Source: a virus
Virus record (IMG/VR): IMGVR_UViG_3300046559_000446
Location: 62,001 to 126,000 of that record
Strand: one strand, 5' to 3'
DNA: 64,000 bases
A program made the translations under genes and the position numbers. Positions 2-62,529 of the stretch are shown one piece after another (position 1 is the stretch's first letter; each line of letters begins with the position of its first letter). The notes under the pieces are model-generated. The model was not told where the DNA came from, did no database searches, and was given only the letters and a program-made list of their open reading frames with translations.

Positions 2-160
2 GAGGGCAATTTGTTTGAAGACATCATGAAGATCCAGCATGACAAGACCCATCGTCACCTCTTCTCCGACATCCAGAGCGGTGCAATTTCACCGGATGAC
101 ATAGAGAAACGGAAGGAGTGGAGGCATATGTCCCGCTGGTTCAGAAATTATGGAGGGTGA
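2..160 (+). CDS. C-terminal end of a phage protein (5' end outside window)
   Basis: Fifty-two codons of an open frame that enters from before the window end at TGA 158-160, three bases before the GTG start of the next gene. The visible tail is charged, rich in Lys, His, Arg and Asp, and ends in Asn-Tyr-Gly-Gly. No domain is recognisable. Position directly upstream of an internal virion-type protein suggests a late structural gene; that is inference from context only. Confidence 0.7.
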   Translation, partial: EGNLFEDIMKIQHDKTHRHLFSDIQSGAISPDDIEKRKEWRHMSRWFRNYGG

Positions 161-163
161 GCC

Positions 164-2296
164 GTGGGTGACATTGGCGAATACAACACATCGAGTGACG
201 CCAAGGCTCCTACTGCGGCTGCGCCCATTGAAGCTGGAGCTTCCGACGCTGCATCGAGGCCTGACGCACACCCGATCCACGAATACAATACACCAAGCGA
301 TGCCGCCTCTACGGAGGCAAAGGTTGAGACGCCGAAGCCGCCGCCTGATTACGCCAATATGTCCGGTTGGGATGTCGCTAAAGGCACTGCCAAAGCTTTT
401 ATTCCGTCAGCAGCCGCGAAAGTGGGCGACGTAGTTTCAGGCTTGGGCAGCGCGGCCAAGCATGTCTATGACACGCATGAGCTTCCCGGCAAAGATCTGG
501 TTCAAGGCGCCGATGCGTGGGTCAACAGGAAGCTTTCGGACTATGCTCCCGAAACCATGAAGGTGGTCAACAAGGCGATAGGCTACACGCCGCCTTCGGA
601 CGCGGAGTACGAGGCGAAGGTGAAGCCGGCGACCGAAGCTGCTTCCGCTGCTTACCACAGCACCGTGGACCCCTTCACATCGTGGCCTAAGTTCGCTGAG
701 AAGATGACCACAGACCCTGTAGATCCGCTGCTCAACGTCGCCAGCGTGGCGATGCCGGCTCTGCGCGTGGCCAGAACCGGAGCCGAATTGACTGGCTTGG
801 CTTCCAAGGCTGGCAAGGCGGCTGACCTCACTAAGGTGACGACCCCCGGCGAGCTAGGCCAGGCTGTCCACGGCGCTGCGTCTGAGGCGCTCGCCGCGAA
901 AGATCTCGCTTATAAGAAAGCTTTCAGCCACACCGCTACGTTTGACCCCGCTGCGGTTCAACCCATCATGAGCGAAGTGCAGGCCAATCTCGCCAACACG
1001 CCAAACTTCCCAGGCTTGAACCGTCTTGACAAGCACCCGCACCTCGCGGACGCCAAGGTGGCGTATGACCATTTGGAGAACAGCCTCAAAACCATAGACC
1101 CGAATGATTTCACCATGCCGAACATGGAGAACATCAGGCGCGACCTCCAGCAGAAGGCGATGGAGACAGAAAGCGGCCCCGCTCGCTACATGATCGGCCA
1201 GATGATCGACGGAATCGACACTGGCATCAGCAAGGTGGCCGTGAAGCCGGGAATGTACGGCGGCGACGGCGCTGCGGTGGCGAGCGACATGGCCAAAGCT
1301 CGCAAGTTGAACGTCGACTGGATCAAGCAATTCGGCAGTGAGGCGCCATCGAGCTTCAAGCCCACGATGAACACGCTCCCGAAAGACCTGGCGACGGCTG
1401 ACGACAACCACTTCCACGCCGTCGGCACGGGCCTCGGCAATGCGCTGATGAATGAGGGCAAGGGCGGCGTTCTCTACAGCCATCTCAAGCAGTTTGTGCC
1501 GAAGGAAACACTCGACAATTACCTGCGCCAGCCGATGCTGGCGGGCGATTCGGCAACCGTGATGAAGCGTCTAAACGCGCCCGTCGCGCAGGATGTCTTT
1601 GGCTCCGATCTGGACAAGGTCAAGAGACTAGCCGCCTCACAGGACACCAAGACGCTCATGGGCAAGGCGGCCCCGGTCGCTAAGTGGGGGTTGGAGGCAG
1701 CGGCGCCTTTCGTTGGCCACGCGCTGCTTCCGGGTGGCGGCGGCGCCTTGGCTGGGGCAGCAGTGAGTGGTATTGGGGAGCTTGCGAGCAGGAAGTTTTT
1801 CCCGCACGGCGTCGGCAACAGGGCGCCGCTTTTTGAGCGTTATGCAGGCAAGCCGGCGCCTGCGGCGGCCCTGCCAGATAAAGGATTGCGCGCCGCGCTC
1901 CCGCTGGTGAGGCCAAGTAGCTACACGCAATTCCTTAAGCCTTCAACCTACAAGGGCGGGAGGCTTCCTGCAGCAGCCATCGCCGGCCATCGCCCGCCTG
2001 TCGGCGGCGCGCCCATCGCGCCCATCGCGCCTGTCGCCGCCGCCCCGGCCCCAGTGACCGCAGACGCGGAGGCGCGCGTCGATCCGTTGGCGGGAATGTC
2101 TTATGGCTATGACCCCACGGGGAAAAATCGATACGCCAGCGGCGGCGCCGTGAAAGGGCACCAGCACCTGGTCGATCGACTGTTCTCCGCAGCAGAGCGC
2201 GCCAAGCGCGAGGAAAAAGCGCATACTGCAGACATCCTGCACCAGCCGGATGAGGCGGTCGCAAAAGCCCTACACGTCGCCCAGGCGGCTATCTGA
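164..2296 (+). CDS. Large internal/ejected virion-type protein
   Basis: 710 aa from a GTG start three bases after the previous stop, with GGAGG (152-156) as ribosome binding site. The protein is Ala/Pro-rich, with a mostly helical central part, an Ala-Gly membrane-like stretch near residues 520-550 (APFVGHALLPGGGGALAG) and a Pro/Ala-rich linker near 625-650. It ends in a charged tail containing YASGGAV followed by HQHLVDRLFSAAE and PDEAVAKALHVA. This kind of tail is familiar from internal or ejected proteins of alphaproteobacterial podoviruses (family knowledge). No enzymatic motif was seen. The same SGGAV-like motif recurs in other virion proteins of this window (38654, 41203, 47852). Role in DNA ejection is inferred. 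Confidence 0.6.
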   Translation: MGDIGEYNTSSDAKAPTAAAPIEAGASDAASRPDAHPIHEYNTPSDAASTEAKVETPKPPPDYANMSGWDVAKGTAKAFIPSAAAKVGDVVSGLGSAAKHVYDTHELPGKDLVQGADAWVNRKLSDYAPETMKVVNKAIGYTPPSDAEYEAKVKPATEAASAAYHSTVDPFTSWPKFAEKMTTDPVDPLLNVASVAMPALRVARTGAELTGLASKAGKAADLTKVTTPGELGQAVHGAASEALAAKDLAYKKAFSHTATFDPAAVQPIMSEVQANLANTPNFPGLNRLDKHPHLADAKVAYDHLENSLKTIDPNDFTMPNMENIRRDLQQKAMETESGPARYMIGQMIDGIDTGISKVAVKPGMYGGDGAAVASDMAKARKLNVDWIKQFGSEAPSSFKPTMNTLPKDLATADDNHFHAVGTGLGNALMNEGKGGVLYSHLKQFVPKETLDNYLRQPMLAGDSATVMKRLNAPVAQDVFGSDLDKVKRLAASQDTKTLMGKAAPVAKWGLEAAAPFVGHALLPGGGGALAGAAVSGIGELASRKFFPHGVGNRAPLFERYAGKPAPAAALPDKGLRAALPLVRPSSYTQFLKPSTYKGGRLPAAAIAGHRPPVGGAPIAPIAPVAAAPAPVTADAEARVDPLAGMSYGYDPTGKNRYASGGAVKGHQHLVDRLFSAAERAKREEKAHTADILHQPDEAVAKALHVAQAAI

Positions 2297-20929: not shown

Positions 20930-21364
20930 ATGAAACTCTCCACCGCCCGCCTCACAGACATCGCCGCGATCAACAAGTTCCTGTTCGCCGGCAACGCCAC
21001 TTTCACCCTGGTGTCGGCCAAGACCGGCGCTCGCTACACCTTCAAGGCGCGTCACTGCGGCGACGAAGGCAAGGATCTGTTTTTCGTGTCGGTCCTGACC
21101 GGCGCCGACAACGAGGCCTCCTACACCTACCTGGGCCAGTTCGTCGGCATGCGCGGGTTCCAGCATGGCCGCAAATCGACGATCAGCGCCGAGGCGCCGT
21201 CGGCCAAGGCCCTGGCCTGGTTCTCCAAGTTCCTGAACACCGCGAGCCTGCCCGATGTGGTCGAGTTCTGGCACGAGGGCAAGTGCTGCCGCTGCGGTCG
21301 CAAATTGACCGTCCCCGCTTCCATCGCTTCCGGCATTGGTCCGGAATGCGCCACCAAGATCTGA
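20930..21364 (+). CDS. DUF6011-type zinc-finger protein
   Basis: 144 aa, ATG 20930 with GAGGA upstream. The C-terminal part FWHEGKCCRCGRKLTVPASI then SGIGPECATK matches the DUF6011 pattern (C-x-R-C-G-R..L..P.S...G.GP.C), a short zinc-binding motif in many phage proteins. The N-terminal 95 residues are a beta-rich domain of unknown role. Made from a strong promoter. Confidence 0.75.
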   Translation: MKLSTARLTDIAAINKFLFAGNATFTLVSAKTGARYTFKARHCGDEGKDLFFVSVLTGADNEASYTYLGQFVGMRGFQHGRKSTISAEAPSAKALAWFSKFLNTASLPDVVEFWHEGKCCRCGRKLTVPASIASGIGPECATKI

Positions 21365-23561: not shown

Positions 23562-23751
23562 TCAGTGCCGGTTCTACGATCCGCTCTCCAAGCCGTGGGA
23601 GTGGCGCGGCTCCTGCAACATCAAGCTGCCGCCTGGCGCTATTATGGACGCCAACGGGGGCTATATTCCCGACAGGTTCACGCGCGGCGATTCGGGCTGC
23701 GATCTGGGCCAGCCGATTGAAGAAAAGGAGGAAACAGCCGATGACGCCTGA
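23545..23751 (+). CDS. Small Cys-containing protein
   Basis: 68 aa, ATG 23545 inside the end of paralogue 2. Cys arrangement KCNQCRFY, GSCNIKLPPG, SGCDLG could bind zinc or a metal. Conserved cysteine-rich proteins of this type occur in phages; role unknown. Confidence 0.6.
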   Translation: MTMKCNQCRFYDPLSKPWEWRGSCNIKLPPGAIMDANGGYIPDRFTRGDSGCDLGQPIEEKEETADDA

Positions 23752-24921: not shown

Positions 24922-27798
24922 ATGTCGAATATAGATCACGGTTCAGGCGGAAGCAAGGGCGGCGGCGGGGGCGGCTCGCAATATCGGTTTTTTCAGATGA
25001 TGGCTAATTATGCCGATTTGCTGATCGACGCCGGCTATCCCATCATCCCGGTCAAGGGCAAGATCCCGACAGACGAAGGTTGGCTGGATCGAAAATACAG
25101 CAAGAGCGACATGCGCGAGCGCATGCTGGCCGGCGGCAATATCGGCCTGCCCCTGGGCCGTGAAGTGGGCGACGACATGGCGCTGGTGTCCATCGACGTC
25201 GATATCCCATTTCTGGCCCCTGCCGAGGCGGTGCGCGGCGTCATGCCAGACGGGCCGACCTGCTATGGAAATCAGCCAAAATTTAAGATGATCGCGCGTG
25301 TGCCCCTGGCCGAAGCTTATTCGCGGGATTATCCCTTTGTGCGCTACAACGGCGCCGGCGAGGAAAAAATCCAGGTCCAGGTGCTGGGCAAGGGCAAACA
25401 AGCGGTGATTTTCGGCATCCATCCCGAAACCGGCAAAATGTATTTTTGGGACGCCGATTCGCAGCAACGGCGCATTTTCGAAATGGCGCCGGATGATTGG
25501 CCGGCAATTAACAACATCGAGACGCTGATAGGATCGATAGCGCGGGCGCTGGAGCCGTTCGGCTGGTCCCGGCGGGCGTCAGGCGTCGGCGGGGCGTCGC
25601 CGCGCGCCCAGGCCTATCCGGAGGGCGTCGAGATCCCGGAGCATATCCTGGACGCGGTCGAAGCTTACCTGAACCGCGAGATCGCCGTCCTGGCCGGCAT
25701 GGCGCCTGGCACGGGGCGCGGGACCAAAGCTTTCGAAATCGGCTGCTGGGCCGGGTTCGCGCTGCGCGATGGCGGCATTGATTTTGACGCGGTGCGGGCC
25801 GAGGTGTCGGACGCCCTGGGCGAAAATCAAAAAGACCTGCGACAATTCGACAATGGCGTGGCTAAGTCGGACGGGCAGCAATTCGCAGAGCCAAAAATCG
25901 ACTGGAACGCCGAGGCGGCAAAGATGGGCGGGCCTGGGCCAGCGCCAAACGTCACCTCAATCGGCCATGACGGCTACAGGATCGCCCTCGCCACGCTGCA
26001 CCGGACCCTTGAGCGCCGGCATGTGCTGCGCCATGGCACAGACACGTCATATGCGGCGCTGATCGCGGAGGCGGCGACCCTGTCCTGGCGTGGTTCGCTT
26101 TACCGCAACATGGCCGGCGATGTGGTGCGGGTGATGCCGTCCGCCGGCGCGCATGGCACGGCGGCGCCAAAGGGCACGTTGAAGGATCCGACGCCGCCGC
26201 AAGTGCGGGTATCGGTTCCGGATGATTGCGAGGTGCGGCTGATGATCGGGGACGCGGTCACAACCTGGGAGCGGGTCAGGATCCCGGACGAGGGCGGGCC
26301 GTCGCATATCGTGATCAATCGCGACCCCAACGGCGAGGACATATCGTGGAGGGGCGCCGGCGGGCTGAAGGTCGAGGGCGCCAAAACCTCGATCTGGGCC
26401 AGGCGCGCGGCGCACAATCACGGGCGCGAGGCCTGGATTGACGACCGCGACGCCTGGGTGAAATGCGCCTTGCCCAAGGGCGAAGGGATTAAGGCGGTGG
26501 TGAAGGCCTTCCGGACCAATGCCGGCACAGTGGGGACGCCGTGGCTGCGCTCGGTATCGACGGCGCCGTCTTTCGGCAGGGACGGGCGGCTGCTGATGGA
26601 TGACGGGCCGCTGGAGACGGCGGCGGGTGAAATCGTGTTTACGGTCCAGGGGGCGATGCGCGGCCACGTCAAGCTGATGCATATTGACGACGCCAAGAAG
26701 GTGCTGATGGACTTCCTGGCCCTGTTTCCGTTCGCTGACGACGTGAGCGAATCGGTGGGCCTGGCGCTGTTCCTGTCGCTGATCGCGCGCGGGGCCTTTG
26801 GCGTGGGGCCGGCTTACGTGATCGACGCGCCGGATTATGGCGCCGGCAAAACTTTTCTGGCCGGCAAGCTGGGGCTGTTTTCGGGGCAACCCATGAACCT
26901 TATCCCGTGCGGCGTGGACAAGGGCGAAGAGGAATTAAGCAAGCGTTTCGAGACGGCGCTGATGACGGAGGCGAGCGGGATGCTTTTGCTCGATGATGTG
27001 CCGCATGGAAAGATGCCGAACTTTCCGACGATGCGAACCTACCTAAGCGCGACCACGCCAGAGCTAAAAATCCGGCGGTTCGGCAAAAACGACGATCACA
27101 AGACAGTCAGGACGGACGCGACCACGCTTGCGGTCACCGGCTGCGCGGTCGAAGTGAGCAAGGACATGGTGCGGCGGGTGCTGCGCACGAACCTGGATCC
27201 GCGCAAGGCGGCGGACAGGGTGGAGTGGGAGGCCGAGGCCTGCCGGCTGGACCTGGACGCCATGTATGCAGACCCGGCAGCGCACGGGCGCGTCCTGGGG
27301 GCCGCGCTGACGGTCCTAGACCATAACTGGCGCACCAGGCCGGCCAGGCTCGATCCGTCGCAGAATTACGAAGCTTGGTCGCGGGTGGTCAGGGAAGCTT
27401 GCAAGGCGGTCACTAATTTTGATCCGGACGATTCCAGGGCGGTGCTTGAGGCGATGGACGCCGATCATGAGCAATGGAGCGACACGCTGCTGGCGGTCAA
27501 GGCGGTGATGGACGGCAAGCCGTTCACGGTCGCGGAACTTGTGGAGAAAGCGCAGGCGTCGGGGAGCACGTTCGGGAGCGTGGGCGCGCCTAGCCCGGCT
27601 CAGGCGGCGCTCGATCACCTCATAGATGAATTTGAACTGCACCGCATCAAAGCAAGCCGGTTTGCGAAACGGCTGGGCCGGTTCCTGCTCAAGCATCGCG
27701 ATAGGCCATTGTGGGAAAAGGGTAAGGAAATTTTCTTGCGCCAGGCCGCCAAGCGAACACAGTTTAAGGGCGAAAAGACGGTCTGGCGGTTCGAATAG
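24922..27798 (+). CDS. Bifunctional primase-polymerase / helicase
   Basis: 958 aa, ATG 24922. The N-terminal part matches the prim-pol domain: GYPIIPVKGKIP, GGNIGLPLG, ALVSIDVD with catalytic Asp92-x-Asp94, and later VQVLGKGKQAVIFG. The C-terminal half holds an AAA/SF3-like ATPase: YGAGKTFLAGKLG (Walker A, Gly640-Thr644) and LLLDDVPHG (Walker B, Asp691/Asp692). This is the single-polypeptide primase-helicase typical of phages that lack DnaB and DnaG homologues. It ends next to the repeat-rich candidate origin, its likely site of action. Confidence 0.9.
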   Translation: MSNIDHGSGGSKGGGGGGSQYRFFQMMANYADLLIDAGYPIIPVKGKIPTDEGWLDRKYSKSDMRERMLAGGNIGLPLGREVGDDMALVSIDVDIPFLAPAEAVRGVMPDGPTCYGNQPKFKMIARVPLAEAYSRDYPFVRYNGAGEEKIQVQVLGKGKQAVIFGIHPETGKMYFWDADSQQRRIFEMAPDDWPAINNIETLIGSIARALEPFGWSRRASGVGGASPRAQAYPEGVEIPEHILDAVEAYLNREIAVLAGMAPGTGRGTKAFEIGCWAGFALRDGGIDFDAVRAEVSDALGENQKDLRQFDNGVAKSDGQQFAEPKIDWNAEAAKMGGPGPAPNVTSIGHDGYRIALATLHRTLERRHVLRHGTDTSYAALIAEAATLSWRGSLYRNMAGDVVRVMPSAGAHGTAAPKGTLKDPTPPQVRVSVPDDCEVRLMIGDAVTTWERVRIPDEGGPSHIVINRDPNGEDISWRGAGGLKVEGAKTSIWARRAAHNHGREAWIDDRDAWVKCALPKGEGIKAVVKAFRTNAGTVGTPWLRSVSTAPSFGRDGRLLMDDGPLETAAGEIVFTVQGAMRGHVKLMHIDDAKKVLMDFLALFPFADDVSESVGLALFLSLIARGAFGVGPAYVIDAPDYGAGKTFLAGKLGLFSGQPMNLIPCGVDKGEEELSKRFETALMTEASGMLLLDDVPHGKMPNFPTMRTYLSATTPELKIRRFGKNDDHKTVRTDATTLAVTGCAVEVSKDMVRRVLRTNLDPRKAADRVEWEAEACRLDLDAMYADPAAHGRVLGAALTVLDHNWRTRPARLDPSQNYEAWSRVVREACKAVTNFDPDDSRAVLEAMDADHEQWSDTLLAVKAVMDGKPFTVAELVEKAQASGSTFGSVGAPSPAQAALDHLIDEFELHRIKASRFAKRLGRFLLKHRDRPLWEKGKEIFLRQAAKRTQFKGEKTVWRFE

Positions 27799-28161
27799 TG
27801 TTAGGGGTTTGGGGAAAATTTTGGGGGTTTTATGGGGGTTTGCGTTTGAGCAAACCCCTAACCATTTTTCCTGTTAAATCAATGGTTTAGGACGTAATAC
27901 AGGGGTTTTAGGGGTTTTATTTTATATTTAAGGAATATTTTTTATATCTTATGTCTTAATATGAGACACATATGAATGATTTTTCTATATAAAGGTAGCT
28001 CGTAAAACCCCTAAAACCCCTAAAATCGAGAAAGGCCTTTAGAATCATGGTTTTAAGGCTAGGGGTTTGTTTGCCAGGGGTTTTATTTCAAACACCTAAG
28101 CAAACCCCTAAACGAAAGAAAGACGCCCGGAGGCGTCAATCTAGTTGACTTTCGTTAAAGG
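27799..28161. other. Candidate replication origin: AT-rich core between AGGGGTTT repeats
   Basis: 363 gene-free bases between the primase-helicase and a - strand HTH-like gene. Nine copies of AGGGGTTT or its complement: + at 27803, 27901, 27910, 28061, 28076; - at 27852, 28005, 28014, 28102, plus two GGGGGTTT (27823, 27834). The first three are exactly 49 bp apart, and the pairs at 27901/27910 and 28005/28014 are 9 bp apart in opposite orientation around an AT-only-like core (27918-28004), a possible unwinding element. GGGG runs at 27804-27838 could form a G-quadruplex. GGGGTTTGC/GCAAACCCC makes a hairpin at 27835-27858. Confidence 0.65.
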
Positions 28162-28368
28162 TCACGATTTCGTATACGTCATGACTTGTTTTTGTGACAT
28201 GCCGGTGCGGATCATGAGGCGCAGGAACATTGCGACAGGCAATGGCGGCCCGATATGCTGCCAGTGCTGATAGTGGGTCTGCCGAGAGTAGCCGAACAGG
28301 GCGGCGCATTGCGGCCCTGTTAGTTTGAGGTGGCGCAAGGCCATGCAATATTCGGTGGCGTCCATCAT
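28162..28368 (-). CDS. Small HTH-like DNA-binding protein next to the origin
   Basis: 68 aa, ATG 28368 overlapping the upstream TGA. LRHLKLTGPQCAALFGYSRQ followed by THYQHWQ has the spacing of a helix-turn-helix of XRE type (T-x-x-x-A-x-x-x-G-x-S). Position beside the repeat region makes it a candidate origin- or operator-binding protein; inference. Confidence 0.55.
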   Translation of the reverse strand: MMDATEYCMALRHLKLTGPQCAALFGYSRQTHYQHWQHIGPPLPVAMFLRLMIRTGMSQKQVMTYTKS

Positions 28369-28580
28369 TTGACCCTCGTCTTTTCAATGCGCCAGGTATA
28401 TGCGGCGTTTTGGGTGATCGCCAAGCCTTCGTCGCGCCTGTCATGGTTGAAGCGCACGATGCGGAAGGCGTAGCGAAAGGCGGCGTCGCCGCGCTTGAAA
28501 GCGTCGTCGGCGCATCCCTGGCGATGGGCCGCCTGATCGGCGGCGCCACGGGCGGTTTTGAAGGTTTGGGCGAGAATCAT
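28365..28580 (-). CDS. Hypothetical basic 71-aa protein
   Basis: ATG 28580 with AAAGGA eight bases upstream is preferred over the frame's extension to 28676. Helical and basic (FKTARGAADQAAHRQGCADD, FRIVRFNHDRRDEG). Unknown. Confidence 0.5.
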   Translation of the reverse strand: MILAQTFKTARGAADQAAHRQGCADDAFKRGDAAFRYAFRIVRFNHDRRDEGLAITQNAAYTWRIEKTRVK

Positions 28581-30021: not shown

Positions 30022-30060
30022 GTGGAGAGGCCTTTTTGTCTGCGGCGTTGAACTGTCCCG

Positions 30061-36122: not shown

Positions 36123-38657
36123 ATGCCATTGGTGCCGGGCTTGCCCCTGAACATCCGCCAGACCAATGGCGGCGCCCCGCCGGCCATTTCTCCGGGCGTC
36201 TCCATCCAGCATGACGTTCACGAGCCTCCCGGCGTCCCCGAAATGGACGACGCCGGCGCTGTCATCAAGATCGAGCATGCCGACGGCAGCGTCACTGTCT
36301 CGCTTGATGGCAAATCGCTGGTCGATAAGCCAGAGCAGAACACAGGCTGGTTCGCCAACCTGGCCGAAAAGCTTCCGGAAGACGATCTGAGCGGCATTGC
36401 CGACGATTTGCTGCGCGGGATCGACGAGGATCTGACCAGCCGCAACGACTGGATCGAAGAGCGCGCCCAGGGCATCAAGCTGCTCGGCCTCAAGATCGAG
36501 ATCCCCAATTTGCAGTCGGCGGCGGACGGCGCCCCGGTGGACGGCATGTCAAAAGTGCGGCATCCGCTGCTGCAGGAGGCGGTGCTCCGCTTTCAAGCCA
36601 ACTGCCGCTCCGAAATGCTGCCCACCGACGGGCCGATCAAGATCCGCGATGACGGCAGCAACTCCAATCTCCCTCGTGACGCACTGGCGACCGCCCTTGA
36701 AAAAGACCTCAATCATTATCTCACTGTCACTGCGACCGAATACTATCCCGACACCGACAAGATGTTCCTTCTGCTGGGCTTTGGCGGCACGGCATTCAAG
36801 AAAGTGTACAACTGCCCGCTGCGTAATCGGCCAGTTTCTGAATCGGTTGACGCCAACGACCTCATCGTCAACGACGCCGCCACCGACCTCGCCAACGCCA
36901 AGCGTGTTACCCATCGATCTATGATGCGGCCCTCGACGGTCAGGCGCATGCAGATAATCGGCGCCTATCGCGACATCGACCTCGATACGCCCAAGCCGCA
37001 GACGCTCGACGCTGCGCAGGAGGCGGCTAAAAACCAGCAAGGGATCCAGACCAACACCACGAGGCCCGACGACCGTGACCGCGAGATCTACGAGTGCTAT
37101 TGCGAACTCGATCTCAAAGGCTACGAGCACAAGTACAAAGGCAAGATTTCGGGCCTTGAGATCCCGTACCGGGTCACCATCGACCTCTCCAGCCGCAAAA
37201 TCCTCTCGGTCGTCAGAAACTACGATGAGGACACGAAGGAGCTTCCTGAAGCTAGAGAGACATTCGTCAAATATACCTACGTACCGGGCCTCGGCTTCTA
37301 CGATATCGGACTCCTTCATATATTGGGCAATACCACCAACGCTGTTACTGCTGCTTGGCGCGAGTTGCTGGACGCTGGAATGTTTAACAACTTTCCCGGC
37401 TTTCTCATGGCTGATACGGGAGCCAGACAGAACACGAATATCTTCCGCGTACCGCCGGGCGGCGGCGTCCTCGTCAAGACGGGCGGTCTTCCCATCAATC
37501 AGGCGATTATGCCACTTCCTTACCAGCCGCCGTCTCAAGCTCTGATGGCCCTGGTCGATAACATGGTGCAGACCGGCCAGCGCAGCGGCGGCACCGCCGA
37601 ACTGCCGGCCAACGAAGGCAAGGCCGAAATCCCCGTCGGCACCATCCTGGCGATGATCGAGCAGGCCCAGAAGGTGCTGAACAACGTCCACAAGCGCATG
37701 CACTCGGCGCAATCGCAGGAATTTCGCCTGCTGATACGCTGCTTCAAGGAGAACCCCAAGGCGTTCTGGCAGCGCAACAAGAAGCCGTCCGCGCCGTGGG
37801 ACGAGCAGAACTTCCGCGCCGCGCTCGATCAGGCCGACCTGACCCCGCAGGCCGATCCGAATACGTCGAGCCATGGCCAGCGCGTGATGAAGATCATGGC
37901 GCTCAAGCAGTTGCAGCAGCAAAACCCCAGTCTCTACGACCCCATCGCCATCGATACGGCGGCGCTGCAGGCGCTGGGCTGGAACAATCCGCAGCAATTC
38001 ATGGCGCCGCCGAGCGCCCAGGCCGCGCCTCCCCCGCAACTCATCCAGCAGCAGGCTGAGACGGCGGCGAAGACCCTCACCTCGCAGGCGGCGATGGTCA
38101 CCGCCCAGGCGCGGGCCAAGGAGGCCGGCGCCCGCGCCATGAACCTGATGGCGGAAGCCCAGACCATGGGCATGGACGAAACCGGCCAGATCCAGCAGGA
38201 CACGCCGGTCGATCAGCACCGCGCCGAATCGGAGCGCATCAAGGCCAACGCGCATGCGCAGCAGGCCGACACTCACCAATCCGTCATGCAGGCCAAGTCC
38301 CAGGCCGACCTGCTGAACGCCCAGACGCGGGCCAAGGAAATCCAATTGAAGCTGGGCGAACTGTCGATGAAGGATTCGCACCACGACGACGAGCAGCGCC
38401 TCAAGGCGAGGCAGAGCGCCGTCGATATGGCCAAGCAGGTCATGGACACCCGTGCCGAAGACCAGCGCACCGCCGCCGAGATCCATCACGATCACACCAT
38501 ACTGAGCCGCGAGCAGGAGCACGATCACGCGATCACCGAAAAGACCCACGCGCATGAGAAGGAATTGGAGGGCGTGAAGAAAGCGGCGGCTATCGCGGTC
38601 GCTAAAGCCAAACCGAAACCCAAGCCTGCAGCCGCCAAGCCAAAGGCCAAGAAATGA
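36123..38657 (+). CDS. Portal protein (P22-like)
   Basis: 844 aa, ATG 36123. The central region (about 120-560) reads like P22-type portals: KVRHPLLQEAVLRFQANCR, EYYPDTDKMFLLLGFGGTAF then KKVYNC.. , and NNFPGFLMADTGARQNTNI. The C-terminal ~200 residues form a long coiled-coil barrel-like tail, Ala/Gln/Lys-rich with many HAHEKE-type repeats and a basic KPKPKPAAAKPKAKK end. Portals form the dodecameric DNA gate. The order TerS-TerL-portal fits. Length is above P22 gp1 (725 aa) because of the tail. Confidence 0.85.
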   Translation: MPLVPGLPLNIRQTNGGAPPAISPGVSIQHDVHEPPGVPEMDDAGAVIKIEHADGSVTVSLDGKSLVDKPEQNTGWFANLAEKLPEDDLSGIADDLLRGIDEDLTSRNDWIEERAQGIKLLGLKIEIPNLQSAADGAPVDGMSKVRHPLLQEAVLRFQANCRSEMLPTDGPIKIRDDGSNSNLPRDALATALEKDLNHYLTVTATEYYPDTDKMFLLLGFGGTAFKKVYNCPLRNRPVSESVDANDLIVNDAATDLANAKRVTHRSMMRPSTVRRMQIIGAYRDIDLDTPKPQTLDAAQEAAKNQQGIQTNTTRPDDRDREIYECYCELDLKGYEHKYKGKISGLEIPYRVTIDLSSRKILSVVRNYDEDTKELPEARETFVKYTYVPGLGFYDIGLLHILGNTTNAVTAAWRELLDAGMFNNFPGFLMADTGARQNTNIFRVPPGGGVLVKTGGLPINQAIMPLPYQPPSQALMALVDNMVQTGQRSGGTAELPANEGKAEIPVGTILAMIEQAQKVLNNVHKRMHSAQSQEFRLLIRCFKENPKAFWQRNKKPSAPWDEQNFRAALDQADLTPQADPNTSSHGQRVMKIMALKQLQQQNPSLYDPIAIDTAALQALGWNNPQQFMAPPSAQAAPPPQLIQQQAETAAKTLTSQAAMVTAQARAKEAGARAMNLMAEAQTMGMDETGQIQQDTPVDQHRAESERIKANAHAQQADTHQSVMQAKSQADLLNAQTRAKEIQLKLGELSMKDSHHDDEQRLKARQSAVDMAKQVMDTRAEDQRTAAEIHHDHTILSREQEHDHAITEKTHAHEKELEGVKKAAAIAVAKAKPKPKPAAAKPKAKK

Positions 38658-40870
38658 ACGAGCGCGCGAAAGCCCTTGGCTTCGATCCGTCGCAGACGTG
38701 GTTTCACGGCTCAACTAAGGATCTGCCGGCTTTCGCCGCCAAGCGCGCTCCGCGCAGCGAGCAAATGGGCCTGGAAGGCGTTCACCTTGCGCAAAATCCG
38801 GATTTTGCCTCCCATTACGCCGAAGGGCCTGGCGGCAACGTCACGCCAGTTCATGTGCGCGGCAATATTCTCGACGCCACCCAGCTTATCCCCGAAGGCG
38901 GCGAGCATCACGCCATTCTCGATAAGCTGCTGAAGGGAACAGGCCGCAAGCCATACTGGAACTCTGATGAGCAGGGGCGTCGATTCGCCCCGCCGCTTCA
39001 GGGTCATATCGACGCCGTCAGCCCGCAAAAGGCCAAGCGCGTCATCCAGGAACACGGCTACGACGGCGTCAAATACGATGCTCGATACGGATCATTGCAG
39101 CCTGGAGGCCGCAGCGCGAGCATTTCAAACAAAAGCCCCGCAGTGGTGATGTTCGACCCATCGAATATCCGGGCCAGGACTGCACAATTCGACCCCCAGC
39201 AAGCAGGGAGCGCGGAACTAATGGCATCGAGAGGCGGTAAGGCGATCCACTCTGCGCTCCTGACGGCCAAGAGCCTTTATGACAAGCTGCCGCATGTCGT
39301 CGGCGGCGGGGCGCCGATGGCCAAGGGCGGCGCTGCGCTGGCGCCGATTCCCCAGATCATCATGCCGGGCGATCACCCGGCCCGCATCGACACCCGGCTG
39401 GCGACCGGGGCCAAGCCGCTCGATCTGGGGCCAGGGCCGCGCACCGTCAACATGGCTGCGTTGCGGGCGACGCCGGCGCTGTTCGACAAGAACGTCGATA
39501 TCCTGCGGCACTACCCGAATGTTTCGAAAAGGGCGGCGAAGCTGTCGAACCCGGATATGGCCGAGCATTTCATCAATCACGTCAAGGACAACCTGCTGTG
39601 GCTGCACGATCAGGTGCCCAACGAAACCCGGCAGCGGTCCAAATTGTGGTACGACGGCGCCAACAAGCTGGCCAAGGAGTGGGCGCAAAAATACGGCGTC
39701 TCGGAGGCGTCCGCCGCCGGCGCGCTGGCCGCGCTGTCGCCGCAGAAGGACTGGTTTCAGAACGTGTCGCTGGCCGAGCGCGTCCTGCATGCGATGAAGG
39801 GGCGCGGCAATAACGCATATCATGGTGAAACCTTTTCGCCTGAAATGGAGGGCACCTATCGCGGCCTGGACAAGCTGGCCACCGAGAAGAACGAGCCAAT
39901 CTTCCAGGCGATCAGGGGCAAGTCGCTGGGCGACATCGACGACATGAAGCACATTCCCGGCGACGAGCGCGCGGTCATGAAGGCGCTGTGGATCCGGATG
40001 CACGATCAGACCCACGGCGATCCCGGCTACAAGATCGCCACGCCGGAAGGTCATTTTGGCGAGGTCGCCCGGAACGCCGACGGATCGCCATCGAGGGCGG
40101 GCTGGGGTTCGCTGGGCGAAATCGGCAAGGCGGTGCAGGCCATCGAGAGCAATGGCGATCCGACCTTCATGAACCGCCTGATGGGCGAGCGCCACAAGGT
40201 TCGCAATTTCTACAATAACATCCTCGATCCCAACTCCCAGCACGGCGACGTCACCATCGACACCCATGCGGTCGCCGCCGGCCTGCTGCGCGCGCTGTCG
40301 GGCAATTCGCTTGAGGTGGCGCACAATTTCAGCAACTACGCCGGCAAGGGCGTTCCCGGCGCCGGCGGCTCCAACGCCACCGGCGTGAACGGAACCTATC
40401 CGCTCTACGCCGACGCCTATCGCCAAGCCGCCAAAGAGCGCGGTATACTGCCGCGCGAAATGCAATCGATTACGTGGGAGGCGATCAGAGGATTGTTCCC
40501 CGACACCTTCAAAACTGATAAAAACAACGCCCATATCGACAGCATCTGGAACGACTACAAGAACGGAAAGAAGGGAATCGACGATGTCCGCAAAGAAATC
40601 CACGACTTCGCGGGGGGCATCCGGCCACCGGAGTGGCACGACACCTCTGGAACGCCTGATGCACCGGTTCGGGGTGCCAGTGGACCGGGACTCGTACCTG
40701 GCCCTGGATCACGCGGGCCAGCCCCCCAAGGAATTATCGGCGGAACAGGAAATGGACCTCCCGGAGCACCTGCGCCGCAAGCACCCCGGCAGTCGGGGCT
40801 GATCCTGCCGCCAGGTTATGCCTGCGGCGGCATGATCGACAAAGCATTGGCCGCGACACGGCCCCGGTAA
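38654..40870 (+). CDS. Polyvalent virion protein: ART-like domain plus HhH-GPD-like domain
   Basis: 738 aa, ATGA overlap with the portal. Residues 15-180 resemble ART-PolyVal ADP-ribosyltransferases: QTWFHGSTKDLPAF, GLEGVHLAQNPDFASHYAEG, then HGYDGVKYDARYG and PAVVMFDPSNIRAR. Residues about 265-620 look like a HhH-GPD/DUF7178-type module: ASAAGALAALSPQKDWFQNV, and VTIDTHAVAAGLL with Asp536-Thr-His in the place of the glycosylase Asp. A Pro/Gly linker leads to YACGGMIDKAL. Polyvalent proteins are packaged and injected to modify host or DNA (family knowledge); role here is inferred. Confidence 0.65.
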   Translation: MNERAKALGFDPSQTWFHGSTKDLPAFAAKRAPRSEQMGLEGVHLAQNPDFASHYAEGPGGNVTPVHVRGNILDATQLIPEGGEHHAILDKLLKGTGRKPYWNSDEQGRRFAPPLQGHIDAVSPQKAKRVIQEHGYDGVKYDARYGSLQPGGRSASISNKSPAVVMFDPSNIRARTAQFDPQQAGSAELMASRGGKAIHSALLTAKSLYDKLPHVVGGGAPMAKGGAALAPIPQIIMPGDHPARIDTRLATGAKPLDLGPGPRTVNMAALRATPALFDKNVDILRHYPNVSKRAAKLSNPDMAEHFINHVKDNLLWLHDQVPNETRQRSKLWYDGANKLAKEWAQKYGVSEASAAGALAALSPQKDWFQNVSLAERVLHAMKGRGNNAYHGETFSPEMEGTYRGLDKLATEKNEPIFQAIRGKSLGDIDDMKHIPGDERAVMKALWIRMHDQTHGDPGYKIATPEGHFGEVARNADGSPSRAGWGSLGEIGKAVQAIESNGDPTFMNRLMGERHKVRNFYNNILDPNSQHGDVTIDTHAVAAGLLRALSGNSLEVAHNFSNYAGKGVPGAGGSNATGVNGTYPLYADAYRQAAKERGILPREMQSITWEAIRGLFPDTFKTDKNNAHIDSIWNDYKNGKKGIDDVRKEIHDFAGGIRPPEWHDTSGTPDAPVRGASGPGLVPGPGSRGPAPQGIIGGTGNGPPGAPAPQAPRQSGLILPPGYACGGMIDKALAATRPR

Positions 40871-50416: not shown

Positions 50417-52713
50417 TGGCAAACATCCAGATCCCCAATCTCCCCGTCGCCGTTGCGCTGTCAGGCGACGAATCGCTCGAAATCGTGCAGGCCGGCGTTT
50501 CGGTGCGCGCCACCACCAAGCAGATGGCGCAACTGGCTGCGGTGGGAGAAGAAGGCCCGCCTGGGCCTCCTGGGCCTGTCGGCCCTCCTGGGCCAGCCAG
50601 CACGGTTCCAGGTCCGCAAGGCCCGCCAGGCACTGCCGGCAATCCTGGCGGCGCCGCCAATCAGATCCAGTACAACAACGGCGCGGGCGGCTTCGCCGGC
50701 TTCACGATGAGCGGCGATGGCACTCTGGTCGCCTCGACCGGCGCCATCACGATCACCAAGACCAATGGCGTGAATTTCGGCCCCTACGCCACGGCGACGA
50801 CGCTCCCCCAGTTCAGCAGCACTGTCGCGGGCATTGTTCCGGCGTCAGGCGGCGGATCGACCAAATTCTTGTGCGCGGATCAGACTTGGGCGATTCCTCC
50901 AGGCACTGGCGGCGGGGGAACAGTCACGACCCCCGGCGGCCTCAACGGCCAGCTTCAGTATAACAATGCAGGCGCTTTCGGCGGCATATCCACGAACGGC
51001 ACGGGCGTTCCGCTCGGCACGACTGGTTCAACCGGCGTCAGCCACATCACCGATGTCACCGTGACTGGAGTTGGATCTGGCACGGGAGCGAGCGTAACCC
51101 TCAATAAAACAGTGGGAAACACCAGCGCCATCTATGCCGAGACTGGCGGCGCCCTGCGCTGGCAATTGAGCCTTGGCGACAATGTGGCGGAAAGCGGCAG
51201 CAACGCAGGATCTAATTTTTCTCTTGCTCGCTTCACCGATGCGGGCGCGTGGGTGGACAACCCGATCAGCATCACTCGCTCCAATGGCGACACGACGCTG
51301 GTTCACAATCTTACGCTAGGTGGGAATGTCTACAGCAACGGCGGGCAACTCTCGGCAAGCGGCGCGAACGCCAATGTGTGGTTGAATAAGCCAGCTAGTG
51401 GAAGCGTGTGCGCGTTATACGGGGCTATGAACGGCAAGGCGCGCTGGCAAGTGACGGTTGGCGACAGCGCCGCCGAAAGCGGCAGCAACGTCGGATCTGA
51501 TTTTGGCCTATACCGTTTCAACGATGCCGGGGCATACCTCGACACCTCACTCGCCATCAGTCGTTCCAGCGGCGTCGCTACATTCTCACAGCAAGTTTAC
51601 GCTACTGGATTTAGGGTTGGCACAGGTACGGCTATCGCCGGCGATTCCATAGAACTCGGCAGGCCGGGGCAGAATGCGGCGGCTTTCATCGACTTTCACT
51701 CCGGTGCGAGCAGCACTGATTATGATTGCCGCATCATATCCGCTGGAGGCACGGCGTCGGCGGGTGCTGGCGCTCTTAGTCTGATTGGCGCCACTACGGG
51801 CGTAAGTGGAAATTTTAGCGTAAATGGGGCGTCAAATATTAACGCTCTGAATTGCGGTACGATTAATTCTAACAGCAGCGATTACAGGTGGGTCACTGGT
51901 GTTCAACCAAATACGCTTACGCTGTCTGATGCGTCATTCAATGGCGGTCAGTACCGTGATTTTCACATTCGTGGCGTTGATTCTGGCTACACGGTGGAAG
52001 TTCCGCTAAACGCCATATACCTCACTGCTCAAACTGTTCAGTGTGCTAATAACGTAAATGCCGCTGGCACCATCACTGGCGGAAATGTTACGGCAACCAG
52101 CACAGTTTCGGGAGCTTACGTAACTTCATCTGGAACTGTGAACGGGCAGACTGTTCAGGGAACTTATCTGTATTCGGCTGGAAATGTTAATTGCGCTGGA
52201 AACATGGGGGCCTCTGGCTCGGTTGATGGCGCTCAAGGCATCGTCGGTCGTCAAGGATCAGGCGGCGCGGCTGGACAGAATGTGTGCCAGTTCTGGGATG
52301 GCGCCCACATGAACCAGTATGTCGGCGGCACCTTCGTCGGCTACGTCCAATATATTTCCGACTACCGCGTCAAGGAGAACGTCGCGCCGCTGATGTCGGT
52401 GTGGGACCGCGTCAAGAACCTGAACCCGATCAAATACAGCCTCAAGGATTTCTCGCCAGAAGGTTTCAGGAACACGGTGGACGAGGCCGTGCCGCTGGTC
52501 ATAGGCGATGAAAAGGAACGCTGGGGCTTTCTTGCGCACGAGCTTCAGGCGGTGCTGATCGAAGATGCAGCGAGCGGCGTCAAGGACATCCCTAATCACA
52601 TTCAGACGCCCAACCCGTGGACAGTGATCGCGGCGTTGACCAAGACGCTGCAAGAGGCAATGGCGCGCATCGAAGACCAGGACGCCCGCATCAAAATCCT
52701 GGAGGGGGCATGA
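50416..52713 (+). CDS. Tail fibre 1, collagen-like with C-terminal S74 chaperone
   Basis: 765 aa. The N-terminal 45 residues (MANIQIPNLPVAVALSGDES, EIVQAGVSVRATTKQM) are the virion-anchor type shared with the next two fibres. Residues 46-75 are Gly-Pro-Pro-like collagen repeats. Then come modules with LNKTVGNTSAIYAETG and RWQLSLGDNVAESGSN that recur about every 65 residues. The C-terminus is an intramolecular chaperone (peptidase S74): SDYRVKENV with Ser648-Lys653, expected to cut itself off after trimer folding. Receptor binding is expected in the AT-richer region 51600-52250. Confidence 0.85.
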   Translation: MANIQIPNLPVAVALSGDESLEIVQAGVSVRATTKQMAQLAAVGEEGPPGPPGPVGPPGPASTVPGPQGPPGTAGNPGGAANQIQYNNGAGGFAGFTMSGDGTLVASTGAITITKTNGVNFGPYATATTLPQFSSTVAGIVPASGGGSTKFLCADQTWAIPPGTGGGGTVTTPGGLNGQLQYNNAGAFGGISTNGTGVPLGTTGSTGVSHITDVTVTGVGSGTGASVTLNKTVGNTSAIYAETGGALRWQLSLGDNVAESGSNAGSNFSLARFTDAGAWVDNPISITRSNGDTTLVHNLTLGGNVYSNGGQLSASGANANVWLNKPASGSVCALYGAMNGKARWQVTVGDSAAESGSNVGSDFGLYRFNDAGAYLDTSLAISRSSGVATFSQQVYATGFRVGTGTAIAGDSIELGRPGQNAAAFIDFHSGASSTDYDCRIISAGGTASAGAGALSLIGATTGVSGNFSVNGASNINALNCGTINSNSSDYRWVTGVQPNTLTLSDASFNGGQYRDFHIRGVDSGYTVEVPLNAIYLTAQTVQCANNVNAAGTITGGNVTATSTVSGAYVTSSGTVNGQTVQGTYLYSAGNVNCAGNMGASGSVDGAQGIVGRQGSGGAAGQNVCQFWDGAHMNQYVGGTFVGYVQYISDYRVKENVAPLMSVWDRVKNLNPIKYSLKDFSPEGFRNTVDEAVPLVIGDEKERWGFLAHELQAVLIEDAASGVKDIPNHIQTPNPWTVIAALTKTLQEAMARIEDQDARIKILEGA

Positions 52714-53417: not shown

Positions 53418-56400
53418 GCAATGTCCAGATCCCGAACCTGCCCGCCGCCGGCGCCCTGACTGGCACAGAGCAATTGGAGCTTGTGCAGGCTGGCGTCTCG
53501 GTGCGCGCTACGATTGCGCAAATTGTCACTGACGCGCAAGTTCCGACAGCATCTGACACCCTGCCAGGGATGGACGGCGGGGCCTCGGCGGGCGTCGAGG
53601 TGACCTATTCGCGCGGCGATCACATCCACCCGACCGACACCTCGCGCTATGCGGCGTCGAATCCGGCGAATTATGTGACGGCGGCTGCGCTGGGGCCTTA
53701 TGCCCTGATCGACAGCCAGGCGTTCACGGGGACGCCCTCGATGCCGACAGGCGCCACGGGCGTCACGCAGGCGGCGGCGGATAGTTCGACTAAGCTGGCG
53801 ACCACCGCCTTCGTTAAGGCCCAGGGTTACCAGGTGGCGTCCGCGCTCGGCACGATGTCCACCCAGAACGCCAATAGTGTGGCGATCACCGGCGGCGCCA
53901 TCAACGGGACGACCGTCGGGGCCACCACGCCTAGCACCGGCGCCTTCACTAATCTGTCGGCGTCGGGGACGGTGTCCGGAGCGGGGTTCACCGCGCTGCT
54001 CGCGCCCTATGCGCTGACGGCGAATGTTCCTGTTGCTTCCTCGACCAATCCCTCGATGGACGGGACGGTGGCGATTGGCGTAGGGACGACGTGGGCGCGC
54101 GCCGATCACGTCCACCCTTCCGATACTTCGCGCTATGCGGCGTCGAACCCAGCCGGCTATCAGACGGCGGCGCAAGTCACAGCTTCCCTGGGGCCTTACG
54201 CCCTGATCAATTCTCAGGTGTTCACGGGGACGCCCTCGCTGCCGACCGGCACGATTGGCGTGACGCAGGCGCCTGGCGATAGCTCGACCAAATTGGCGAC
54301 CACGGCTTTCGTCGGGGCGGCGACCACCGCCTTGGGCCTCGGCACGATGGCGGCGCAGAACGCCAACAGTGTCGCGATCACGGGCGGCGCCATCAACAAC
54401 ACGGCGATTGGCGCGACGACGCGCAGCAGCGGCGCTTTCACCACGCTGGCGGCCAACGGCGCGGCGACCTTCACATCCTCGCTGACGGCCTCGCCAGCCA
54501 GCGCCAATGTCACTCTGTCGCCCACCGGCACCGGCACGGTCATCATCAACCCGGCGACGGCTGGCTCCATCGACAATACGGCGGTGGGCGCGACGACGCC
54601 CAGCACCGGCAAGTTTACCACGCTGTCCGCGACGTCGATCAACAGCACCCCGATTGGCCCCACGACGCCCAGCACGGGCGCCTTCACCACTTTGAGCGCC
54701 AATGGCGCGGCGACGTTTACAGGCTCGCTGACGGCCTCGCCAGCCAGCGCCAACGTCACGTTTTCACCGACCGGCACCGGCACGGTCACCATCAACCCGG
54801 CGACGCTCGGCCATGTCGATAACACGGCAGTGGGCGCGACCACGCCCAGCACGGGCGCCTTTACCAATTTGTCCGCGACCGGCACGGTGTCGGGCGCCGG
54901 CTTCACCACGCTGCTGAACCCCTATGCGCTGGTCAATTCTCAGGTGTTCACCGGGACGCCATCGTTGCCGACTGGCACCATTGGCGTGACGCAGGCGACG
55001 GCCACCAACAACACGACGTTGGCGACTACCGCCTTTGTCAAGGCGCAGGCTTATCTGACCGGCAATCAGACCATCACCCATACGGGCGACGCCACCGGAT
55101 CTGGCACCACCAGCATCCCGATGACGGTCGTCCAGCTTCAGGGCAGGCCGCTCGCCGCCACCGCGCCTGCCACCGGCAACCTGATGGGCTGGAACGGCTC
55201 GACGTGGGGGCCGGTTGCGGCTGGCGCGGCGGCGGCTGGCGGCACCAACGGCCAGATCCAGTACAACAATGGCGGCGTCCTCGGCGGCTTGACGCTCAAC
55301 GGCACCGGCAATCCAGTCGGCACGACCAGCCCCACCTTGGCAGGCTCGGTGGTCATCAACGGCACGGCGCTCGGCAGTGTCGCGGGCAACTCGCAGATCG
55401 TCTTCTCGCCGGGTTCAACCGACACCAATGGCGAGTCGCTGCGCACTGAAATCCAGCGCAAGTCGGCGGGATCGGATTGGAGCACCGCCGCTTGGCAGAT
55501 CTACCGTCAGGTAGACAGCACCAAGATGGGCTATATCGAATTTAACAGCGGAAGCTCCAAGCCAATAGCTTTCGGTAATGGCGTCACTGAACATGCCTAT
55601 TTCGACAGCGGTAAAAACCTGACCATTTTCGGCAATGTGGCGGCGACTGAAGTTTCTTACACCAATGGTGTAAACCCAGCGGTTGTTCTGAGTAAAAGCG
55701 CGTCAGGTGGCACGTCTCGCATCGTCGGCTCGATGGCGGGTAGCCCCAGATGGCAGGAAATGCTTGGAGATGCATCAGCCGAAAGTGGCAGCAATGCTGG
55801 ATCAAATTATGGTCTGCAAAGATACACTGATGCTGGGGTTCTTATCGACGCGCCGTTTGCTATCAATCGCGCTTCTGGCATCGCCACGTTTTCGCAGGGG
55901 GTTGCTGCTGCGAGTTACACGGTAAATGCCTTAGCCGCTACCGATGCCGCTTTATACCTCAACAAGCCCGCATCTGGTCGAGCTTCAACTGTGTACGGCC
56001 AGATGGCTGGCTCGACTCGTTGGGGCATGAATTTTGGCGATTCTGGGGCTGAAGCCACAGGCAACGTCGGTTCTGATTTTGGCCTCGCCAGATTTGACAA
56101 CACGGGCGCGTTTATCGACAACCCGCTAACTATTAACCGTGCAACTGGCGCGGTGACGCTGAACCAGACCAACTCTAGCGGTGTGCTAAACCTCACTGCA
56201 ACAGCGGGCGTGTGGCCGCAGATTTCGCTCAATAAAGCGGCCAGCGGCGTGGGCGCTGTTGTAACTGGCACTAAGGCTGGCGTCGCTCGCTGGCAGGTGT
56301 CGCTGGGCGATCAGACCGCTGAAGGCACTGCCAATGCCGGGTCAAATTTCACAATATCCACTTTTTCCGATGCAGGCGCGTACGTAGGCAGTCCGTTTCT

Positions 56401-61839: not shown

Positions 61840-62529
61840 ATGCCACTGATCAAATCCGGATCCAAGGAGGCCGTCAGCCAGAATATCAGGACGGAGATCG
61901 GCGCCGGCAAGCCGCAGAAACAGGCGGTCGCCATCGCCCTCGATGTCGCGAGGCGCGCACGGGACGCCGGCGGCGGCATGCCGACGCTCTCAAAACTGGA
62001 CACGCCGCCTGATGTTCCGAGCACGGTTCACGCGCACCTGTCGGCCAAGGTCCACACCGGCCCGATCCACAGCGCGGTCGCGGGCCGCACCGATCACCTG
62101 CCCGTCCATGTTCCGAGCGGCAGCTATGTCATTCCCGCCGACGTCGTCAGCGGCATGGGCGAAGGAAACACTAATGCCGGATTCAAGAACATCAAGCGGA
62201 TGTTTGGTGGCCTGCCTCGTGGGGCCGGCGAGCAACCCTATGATCATAAAGGCGGACCTTATGGCGCTGGGTCTGCTCCCTATAACATCGATCCCAGCAA
62301 GCCCTATGGCGAACCGCTACCTAGTGGGCATGCTGCTGGCGGGAAAACCGGTAAGGATGTCAAGGTCGTTGTGGCAGGCGGCGAATACACGCTGACGCCT
62401 GAAGAGGTGATGGCGGCGGGCGACGGCGACCTGGATCGCGGCCACCGCGTTCTCGATGATTTTGTCAAACAAATGCGCGGCCACATCGTCAAGACGATGT
62501 CAAAGCTGCCTGGACCGAAGCGAGACTAG
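61840..62529 (+). CDS. Small virion/ejection protein with SGS-type N-terminus
   Basis: 229 aa, ATG 61840. N-terminus PLIKSGSKEAVSQNIRTEIG then GKPQKQAVAIALDVARRARD is a conserved helix block in phage proteins of the DUF6496 type (my recollection). The rest is Gly/Pro-rich with YVIPADVVSG, HAAGGKTGKD and a beta end (VVVAGGEYTLTPEEVM). Possibly injected with DNA; inference. Confidence 0.6.
   Translation: MPLIKSGSKEAVSQNIRTEIGAGKPQKQAVAIALDVARRARDAGGGMPTLSKLDTPPDVPSTVHAHLSAKVHTGPIHSAVAGRTDHLPVHVPSGSYVIPADVVSGMGEGNTNAGFKNIKRMFGGLPRGAGEQPYDHKGGPYGAGSAPYNIDPSKPYGEPLPSGHAAGGKTGKDVKVVVAGGEYTLTPEEVMAAGDGDLDRGHRVLDDFVKQMRGHIVKTMSKLPGPKRD

What the first reader, a model, noticed from the sequence alone, without database searches (positions are those of the whole stretch)
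27799..28161. Candidate replication origin with iteron-like AGGGGTTT repeats and a G-quadruplex-prone start
Nine 8-mer copies in both orientations, two of them paired at 9-bp spacing on each side of an AT-rich core, lie in the only gene-free AT-rich stretch next to the primase-helicase. The first three copies are exactly 49 bp apart. The G-run at the left end (GGGG, GGGG, GGGGG, GGGGG) could form a G-quadruplex. This combination is typical of an initiator-bound origin but the repeat unit is not one I recognise; the TTTTAGGGG phrase even resembles ciliate telomere repeats, which is probably coincidence.
Basis: partly seen in the sequence, partly recalled or inferred. Interest (0 to 1): 0.75.

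Follow-up and report, generated by a model that had tools for sequence, protein, structure and literature searches.

The report
Phage replication origin with mirrored repeats
This stretch is very probably the place where a 69-kb bacterial virus starts copying its DNA, and the same mirrored-repeat layout sits beside the matching helicase gene in dozens of other phages, prophages and plasmids, each with its own repeat word.

Summary
The repeats are real: nine AGGGGTTT in 363 bp, against 1.29 expected in all 64 kb. Their heart is an exact inverted array (AGGGGTTTT x2 and its reverse complement x2) around an 85-bp, 79% A+T core, directly 3' of the 958-aa primase-helicase gene. It is the only such array in the window.

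The key evidence is comparative. The C-terminal ~420 residues form a D5-like helicase family without an NCBIfam match (0 of 54). Of 74 loci tested (window, its sister and five discovery loci included), 43 carry a strong array at the helicase gene's 3' end, against 0 of 592 control windows; without those seven, 37 of 67. The word differs between loci, is shared by both arms of one locus, and tracks the protein's C-terminal domain (partial r 0.43, P 0.0002), not the helicase core.

Best explanation: an initiator-bound origin of SaPI/PICI layout. The C-terminal domain would bind both arms and load helicases on the core. Top fold matches are PriRep1 with dsDNA and vaccinia D5, tied. New variant of a known kind: a 2018 paper called the layout unique to PICIs. 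Binding and replication are not shown.

The parts
24922..27798 (+). 958-aa primase-helicase (proposed initiator): N-terminal DNA-primase-like region, helicase domain from about residue 540, C-terminal winged-helix-like domain
   Evidence: phrog_1156 DNA primase at residues 27-184 and phrog_29234 at 533-843; no Pfam family at E 0.001 or over a cut-off; AlphaFold2 model of residues 500-958, pLDDT 81; PriRep1, D5 and SaPI5 primase-helicase as tied top fold matches
27803..27859 (.). outer left iteron copies (27803 +, GGGGTTT at 27824 and 27835 +, 27852 -), G-run tract
   Evidence: kept in the sister genome
27833..27860 (+). intrinsic-terminator-like hairpin built from two inverted iteron copies, followed by ACCATTTTTC; could end primase-helicase transcription before the core
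   Evidence: 2 terminators found in 1 kb, 1.6 expected in shuffles, so weak by itself
27901..27918 (+). left inner iteron array, AGGGGTTTT x2, period 9
   Evidence: 36 of 36 four-block match with the right arm; only array in the 64-kb window at score >=10.5; 12 shuffled windows reach at most 10.1 against 15.1
27919..28003 (.). 85-bp A+T-rich core (79%), proposed melting and loading site
   Evidence: 4 substitutions between the two sister genomes over 27901-28021, all in the core
27952..27968 (.). small dyad TGTCT-N7-AGACA, centre 27960, one base from the centre of the iteron arms (27961)
   Evidence: comparable central AAACTGTCA/TGACAGTTT dyads in some relatives; in the window only suggestive
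28004..28021 (-). right inner iteron array, AGGGGTTTT x2 inverted
28061..28109 (.). outer right iteron copies (28061 +, 28076 +, 28102 -); the 28076 copy is absent in the sister genome, where an inverted near-copy stands nearby
28122..28137 (-). intrinsic-terminator-like hairpin for the convergent minus-strand genes
   Evidence: kept in the sister genome
28162..28368 (-). 68-aa protein with a sub-threshold HTH match; neighbour, role untested
   Evidence: HTH_28 E 0.018, below its cut-off

Best explanation
The region is the replication origin of a ~69-kb tailed phage, read by its own 958-aa primase-helicase. Inferred mechanism: the C-terminal winged-helix-like domain binds the 9-bp iterons; binding to the two mirrored inner arrays places two helicase assemblies facing the A+T-rich core; the core melts, each helicase loads on one strand, and the fused primase lays primers for bidirectional replication. 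Outer copies probably add binding or copy control, and the hairpins on both sides probably keep convergent transcription out of the core. Shown here: the anatomy, its conservation next to this helicase family, and the statistical link between iteron sequence and C-terminal domain. Inferred: binding, melting, loading, priming and direction.
For: Exact four-block inverted array, unique in the window, on the most A+T-rich stretch of the genome. Region 27840-28060 is 95.9% identical between two sister genomes that match at 71.5% of all positions (85% of aligned ones); 199 of 6864 equal windows do as well. Relatives: score >=12 in 43 of 74 loci against 0 of 592 control windows, >=10.2 in 48 of 74 against 2 of 592; without the window, its sister and the five loci where the pattern was first seen, 37 of 67 and 42 of 67. 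One representative per 70% cluster: 32 of 54 (>=10.2) and 28 of 54 (>=12). In 577,671 bases of the 74 loci from the two family searches, 42 of 44 arrays of score >=12 lie within -100..+700 of the helicase match end. Iteron distance follows the C-terminal domain (r 0.39; partial given core 0.43; both P 0.0002), not the core (r 0.14, P 0.08; partial -0.25), in 26 loci. Fold: PriRep1 with dsDNA Z 13.2, rmsd 5.7, 293 aligned; vaccinia D5 Z 12.9, 4.8, 279; SaPI5 primase-helicase Z 12.4, 5.9, 266; tied. Positive control: the 3' flank of the island primase gene of E. coli CFT073 scores 12.1 at period 9 and 13.5 at period 11; an island of that strain has a functional pri-rep-ori by PMC6092414 (passages), and I take it to be this one from gene order.
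Against: No replication, binding or melting data. Cumulative GC skew peaks at 30050 and is lowest at 62139, not at 27961. 26 of 74 loci fall below 10.2 in the tested stretch: six of them have an array of 12 or more further away (L093, L094, L096, L097, L087, L062), L049 has only a hit of 11.1 inside its gene, 18 show none at >=10.5 in the whole-locus scan, and L021 was not in that scan. The scorer was written after I had read the flanks, so its form was fitted to the pattern. phiAsp2 has a clear homologue (205.6 bits) but only weak period-12 matches. Loci and proteins are related by descent, which permutation does not remove.
Confidence: 0.86

Rival explanations
1. Operator cluster: the repeats are binding sites for a regulator (for example the 68-aa protein) that controls neighbouring transcription.
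For: Repeats in both orientations; a small protein with a sub-threshold HTH match is next door.
Against: The region lies between convergent gene ends and the sigma-70-type scan of 27500-28500 finds 0 promoters (0.8 expected), though other promoter types are not covered. Strong arrays in relatives lie at the helicase gene's end, and iteron sequence follows the helicase's own C-terminal domain.
Confidence: 0.05
2. Packaging (pac/cos) or partition site: the array is recognised by terminase or a segregation protein.
For: The large terminase is encoded about 4.4 kb downstream; inverted repeats also occur at such sites (recalled).
Against: Arrays also stand beside the helicase in small plasmids (6.5 and 12.6 kb) whose listed genes, many of them hypothetical, name no terminase, so packaging is an unlikely shared function. 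Partition is not excluded by sequence alone.
Confidence: 0.04
3. G-quadruplex or telomere-like element: the G-rich strand folds and the fold, not duplex iterons, is the functional unit.
For: Four G-runs at 27804-27838, kept in the sister genome; 40 of 48 arrays have a G/C run of 3 or more.
Against: 8 of 48 arrays have no run of 3, and the inverted duplex symmetry is exact in many loci. Loops here would be 3, 8 and 6 bases. No fold was tested.
Confidence: 0.03
4. Only a transcription terminator region with simple G-rich repeats.
For: Two terminator-like hairpins, 1.6 expected.
Against: Termination needs no 9-bp-period arrays in mirror order around the most A+T-rich stretch of the genome, nor a link to a DNA-binding domain.
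Confidence: 0.02

Closest known systems
SaPI / PICI replication module (Pri-Rep and its origin)
   Same: [quoted passage not shown] C-terminal domain reported to recognise the iterons (PMC7581432, passages); PriRep1 with dsDNA and SaPI5 primase-helicase are among the tied top fold matches (that PriRep1 is a SaPI protein is recalled); my scorer also finds an inverted array behind the CFT073 island primase gene.
   Different: No clear sequence homology to the CFT073 protein (6.5 bits, a short stretch only); period 9 in 39 of 48 arrays, periods 8-10 tested; the carriers here include a full-size phage, prophages and plasmids.
SCCmec Cch2 helicase and putative origin
   Same: D5-type helicase that binds direct repeats downstream of its gene through its C-terminal domain (PMC7581432, passages).
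   Different: Three 5-nt iterons reported there and a separate CCPol-MP primase; not compared by sequence here.
Phage P4 alpha protein with ori and crr
   Same: Initiating helicase and primase fused in one protein (PMC7145576, passages).
   Different: P4 iterons and layout differ (recalled); not tested.
Vaccinia D5, ASFV C962R and NrS-1 primase-helicases
   Same: Same helicase fold class.
   Different: No comparable iteron origin known to me (recalled); a shared fold shows no shared function.

Membership tests
SaPI/PICI-type replication origin (by layout) | Origin immediately 3' of the replication-initiator gene | tested here: met
   Gene ends 27798, inner arms start 27901; 42 of 44 strong arrays in searched loci near the helicase match end. 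That this gene is the initiator is inferred
[quoted passage not shown]
   the CFT073 control gives an array too
SaPI/PICI-type replication origin (by layout) | Initiator C-terminal domain binds the iterons | tested here: inconclusive
   Correlation only: partial Mantel 0.43, P 0.0002, 26 loci
SaPI/PICI-type replication origin (by layout) | Gene plus origin drive autonomous replication | not testable with these tools
   Bench test needed; presence in small plasmids is indirect
PICI (the element) | Satellite that depends on a helper phage for packaging | tested here: not met
   The record encodes its own large terminase, SU10-type portal and tail-fibre proteins in ~69 kb
SaPI/PICI Pri-Rep protein family | Sequence homology over the helicase | tested here: inconclusive
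   CFT073 island protein scores 6.5 bits against the family profile, a short stretch only; PriRep1 fold match Z 13.2, tied with D5
D5-like primase-helicase | D5-type helicase fold fused to a primase | tested here: met
   D5 Z 12.9, rmsd 4.8, 279 aligned; DNA-primase profile at residues 27-184. Pfam gives no D5_N or Primase_Cterm match

The most novel reading that the evidence does not exclude
A widespread, unannotated initiator-helicase family carries a readable origin code: each protein's C-terminal winged helix reads its own 9-bp word, written in mirror image on both sides of a melting core just behind the gene. The pair moves as one cassette between phages, prophages and plasmids of several bacterial phyla while the primase module in front is exchanged (Prim-Pol, DnaG-type zinc ribbon, or none detected). 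Origins could then be found, and compatibility between replicons predicted, from sequence alone.
Probability: 0.55. Interest if true: 0.75.

Novelty: new variant of a known kind. Interest (0 to 1): 0.64.

Why it matters
[quoted passage not shown] Finding it beside an unmodelled helicase family in a full-size phage, in prophages and in small plasmids would remove that restriction, gives a sequence rule for locating origins in uncultured phages, and sets up a natural series of initiator/iteron pairs in which DNA-recognition specificity can be tested directly.

Tried and rejected
GC skew: maximum at 30050 and minimum at 62139 in the A genome; maximum at 23583 and minimum at 54822 in the B genome, whose origin starts at 20966; no support. 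Whole-protein PDB sequence search: 0 hits; profile search: one designed ATPase at E 0.036. Viral-contig scan with A4: 45 stretches, 0 relatives. The phage MW202675, related by its terminase, has a helicase that scores only 4.3 bits against the family, and no array at >=10.5 in the 46-kb stretch read. Four portal and terminase family searches in 12 relative records rang in two, G008 and G009, so I do not claim that the other ten carry packaging genes. Central dyad: 7 of 44 cores hold CTGTC..GACAG against 0.11 in shuffles; the cores are related and the window's own dyad is a weaker one, so it is kept as suggestive. Paper searches: in the listings and the passages read I saw no description of this module in this helicase family; most subscription journals are not held. 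Ubeda 2007 and 2012 (SaPI origin) are not held; I saw them only as cited.

Rows and sets: the '74 loci' are 67 of the 74 search loci plus the window, L008, L019, L020, L021, L022 and L024; seven search loci with too little 3' sequence were dropped (L048, L079, L080, L089, L091, L092, L095). The '74 loci''s whole-locus scan are all 74 search loci. A6 has 54 rows: 48 search loci plus the window, L008, L019, L021, L022 and L024. Mantel test: 29 loci had a period-9 word and a row in A6, 26 after 90% de-duplication. One search left out near-duplicates L028-L030, L064 and L008 and added L093. In one search, 45 of 74 exceed the 99th percentile of 444 controls but none exceeds the highest control, which is the array in L062.

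Full report
OBSERVATION. The nine AGGGGTTT copies, their positions, the 49-bp spacings and the 9-bp-spaced pairs are as reported. The window holds 11 copies against 1.29 expected. Under the 8-mer lies a cleaner pattern: AGGGGTTTT twice at 27901-27918 and its exact reverse complement twice at 28004-28021, around an 85-bp core of 79% A+T. The most A+T-rich 85-bp windows of the 68.9-kb genome (81%) overlap this core. A scorer for 'two tandem blocks, gap of 30-140, two inverted blocks', periods 8-10, gives 36 of 36 here (score 15.1). It finds no second array at >=10.5 in the 64 kb, and 12 dinucleotide shuffles of the window reach at most 10.1.

GENOME. The window is part of a 138,254-base virus record that consists of two ~69-kb genomes head to tail, 85% identical where aligned. 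Other samples hold A-type contigs (L006, L009, L010: primase-helicase 100% identical) and B-type contigs (L007, L008, L011: 88-89%) separately, and in the region aligned each type agrees with its copy in the record. The tandem record is therefore most likely an assembly join of two related phages (inference). This gives a natural comparison: positions 27840-28060 are 95.9% identical between A and B, against 71.5% matching positions over the whole genome; 199 of 6864 equal windows do as well. Over 27901-28021 there are 4 substitutions, none in the arms. In the outer right part one iteron is absent in B and an inverted near-copy stands nearby.

SURROUNDINGS. The region lies between convergent gene ends: the 958-aa gene on + (stop at 27798) and short frames on -. 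Terminator-like hairpins point inwards from both sides, 27833-27860 on + and 28137-28122 on -; two found against 1.6 expected, so weak alone. The sigma-70-type scan finds no promoter in 27500-28500. The phage encodes its own large terminase, an SU10-type portal and tail-fibre proteins.

PROTEIN. The N-terminus (residues 27-184) matches a DNA-primase profile and residues 533-843 match a PHROG of unknown function. The window protein has no Pfam match at E 0.001. Among nine relatives scanned, helicase-region matches to Pfam were at most sub-threshold (DUF5906 in pA17P3, E 0.0027, below its cut-off). In A6, a 54-member alignment of the C-terminal part, no member matches NCBIfam at E 0.01 and all 54 match phrog_29234, unknown function. 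Primase modules in front vary: Prim-Pol in pMNOD06 and L077, a CHC2 zinc ribbon in L034, none detected by Pfam in the Azospirillum prophage protein, and a separate primase/polymerase gene upstream in pCM32. An AlphaFold2 model of residues 500-958 (50 sequences, mean pLDDT 81, pTM 0.79) ends in three helices followed by short strands, a winged-helix-like order (my reading of the secondary structure). The second-look fold matches are led by PriRep1 with dsDNA (Z 13.2, rmsd 5.7, 293 aligned, 28..459), vaccinia D5 (12.9) and SaPI5 primase-helicase (12.4), which count as tied. Foldseek itself ranked ASFV PrimPol first.

RELATIVES. A tblastn of the protein against plasmids found the helicase part in small plasmids and in a prophage on a large plasmid. 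Reading directly behind those genes showed mirrored arrays of other words: AGTGGGTTT x3 (Azospirillum prophage), GGTAGGGATA (pA32H2), GGGGGGTT (pMNOD06), CCGGGTTT (pCM32); pA17P3 shows only a single inverted pair. Two family searches gave 33 and 41 loci; a third gave none. In the stretch -50..+350 of the helicase match end, 43 of 74 loci score >=12 against 0 of 592 control windows from the same loci, and 48 of 74 against 2 of 592 at >=10.2 (seven further loci dropped for lack of 3' sequence). Without the window, its sister and the five loci where I first saw the pattern, the counts are 37 and 42 of 67. The scorer was written after I had read the flanks. With one representative per 70% cluster, 32 of 54 reach 10.2; per 50% cluster, 13 of 24. 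Scanning all 577,671 bases of the 74 searched loci found 44 arrays of >=12, 42 of them near the helicase end; the two others are L062 (4.1 kb upstream of the match end) and L087 (1.06 kb downstream). Best period is 9 in 39 of 48 arrays and the median core is 81.5 bp. Carriers are labelled Pseudomonadota and Actinomycetota, and a few are MAGs labelled Terriglobia or Phycisphaerales, with the usual binning doubt for MAGs.

LINK BETWEEN WORD AND READER. In 26 loci with a period-9 word, distance between words correlates with distance between C-terminal domains (r 0.39, P 0.0002) more than between helicase cores (r 0.14, P 0.08). Given the core, the C-terminal correlation is 0.43 (P 0.0002); given the C-terminal domain, the core correlation is -0.25. 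This points to the C-terminal domain as reader of the iterons. It is correlation among related sequences, not binding.

COMPARISON WITH KNOWN SYSTEMS. [quoted passage not shown] As a check, the 3' flank of a 'DNA primase family' gene in an E. coli CFT073 island, which I take from gene order to be the island of that paper, holds 11 GGTAGA copies counted on both strands and scores 12.1 (period 9) and 13.5 (period 11). The layout therefore works like a PICI origin. The element is not a PICI, and sequence homology of the proteins is not established (6.5 bits).

LIMITS. GC skew does not mark the site. 26 of 74 loci lack a clear array in the tested stretch, and 18 of those show none at >=10.5 anywhere in the locus. 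phiAsp2, a clear homologue (205.6 bits) annotated as a putative DNA polymerase, shows only weak period-12 matches. I saw no experiment on any member of this helicase family.

Noticed in passing
G000:C1:1-138254 (window = 62001-126000): The virus record is two ~69-kb genomes head to tail, ~85% identical, with a 99-bp exact end overlap and a shared exact stretch of about 131 bp at the junctions (derived); separate A-type and B-type contigs exist in other samples. Most likely an assembly join of two co-occurring phages.
   Followed up: partly
window 54392-54879: Direct repeat of about 245 bp, 83% identical, inside the 1457-aa tail-fibre frame.
   Followed up: no
window 52356-52673 and 57313-57636: About 320-bp duplication, 74% identical, between tail-region frames.
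   Followed up: no
window 38654-40870: 738-aa protein with DUF7178 and a sub-threshold ADP-ribosyltransferase (polyvalent protein) match beside the portal gene.
   Followed up: no
L033, L035, L036, L041, L042, L044, L057, L058: In these relatives the array starts before the stop codon of the open frame that holds the helicase; a 9-bp period is three codons, so a frame can run through the iterons. Whether the iterons are translated is unknown.
   Followed up: no
L062:1105-1198: Perfect 36/36 array about 4.1 kb upstream of the helicase match end, instead of downstream.
   Followed up: no
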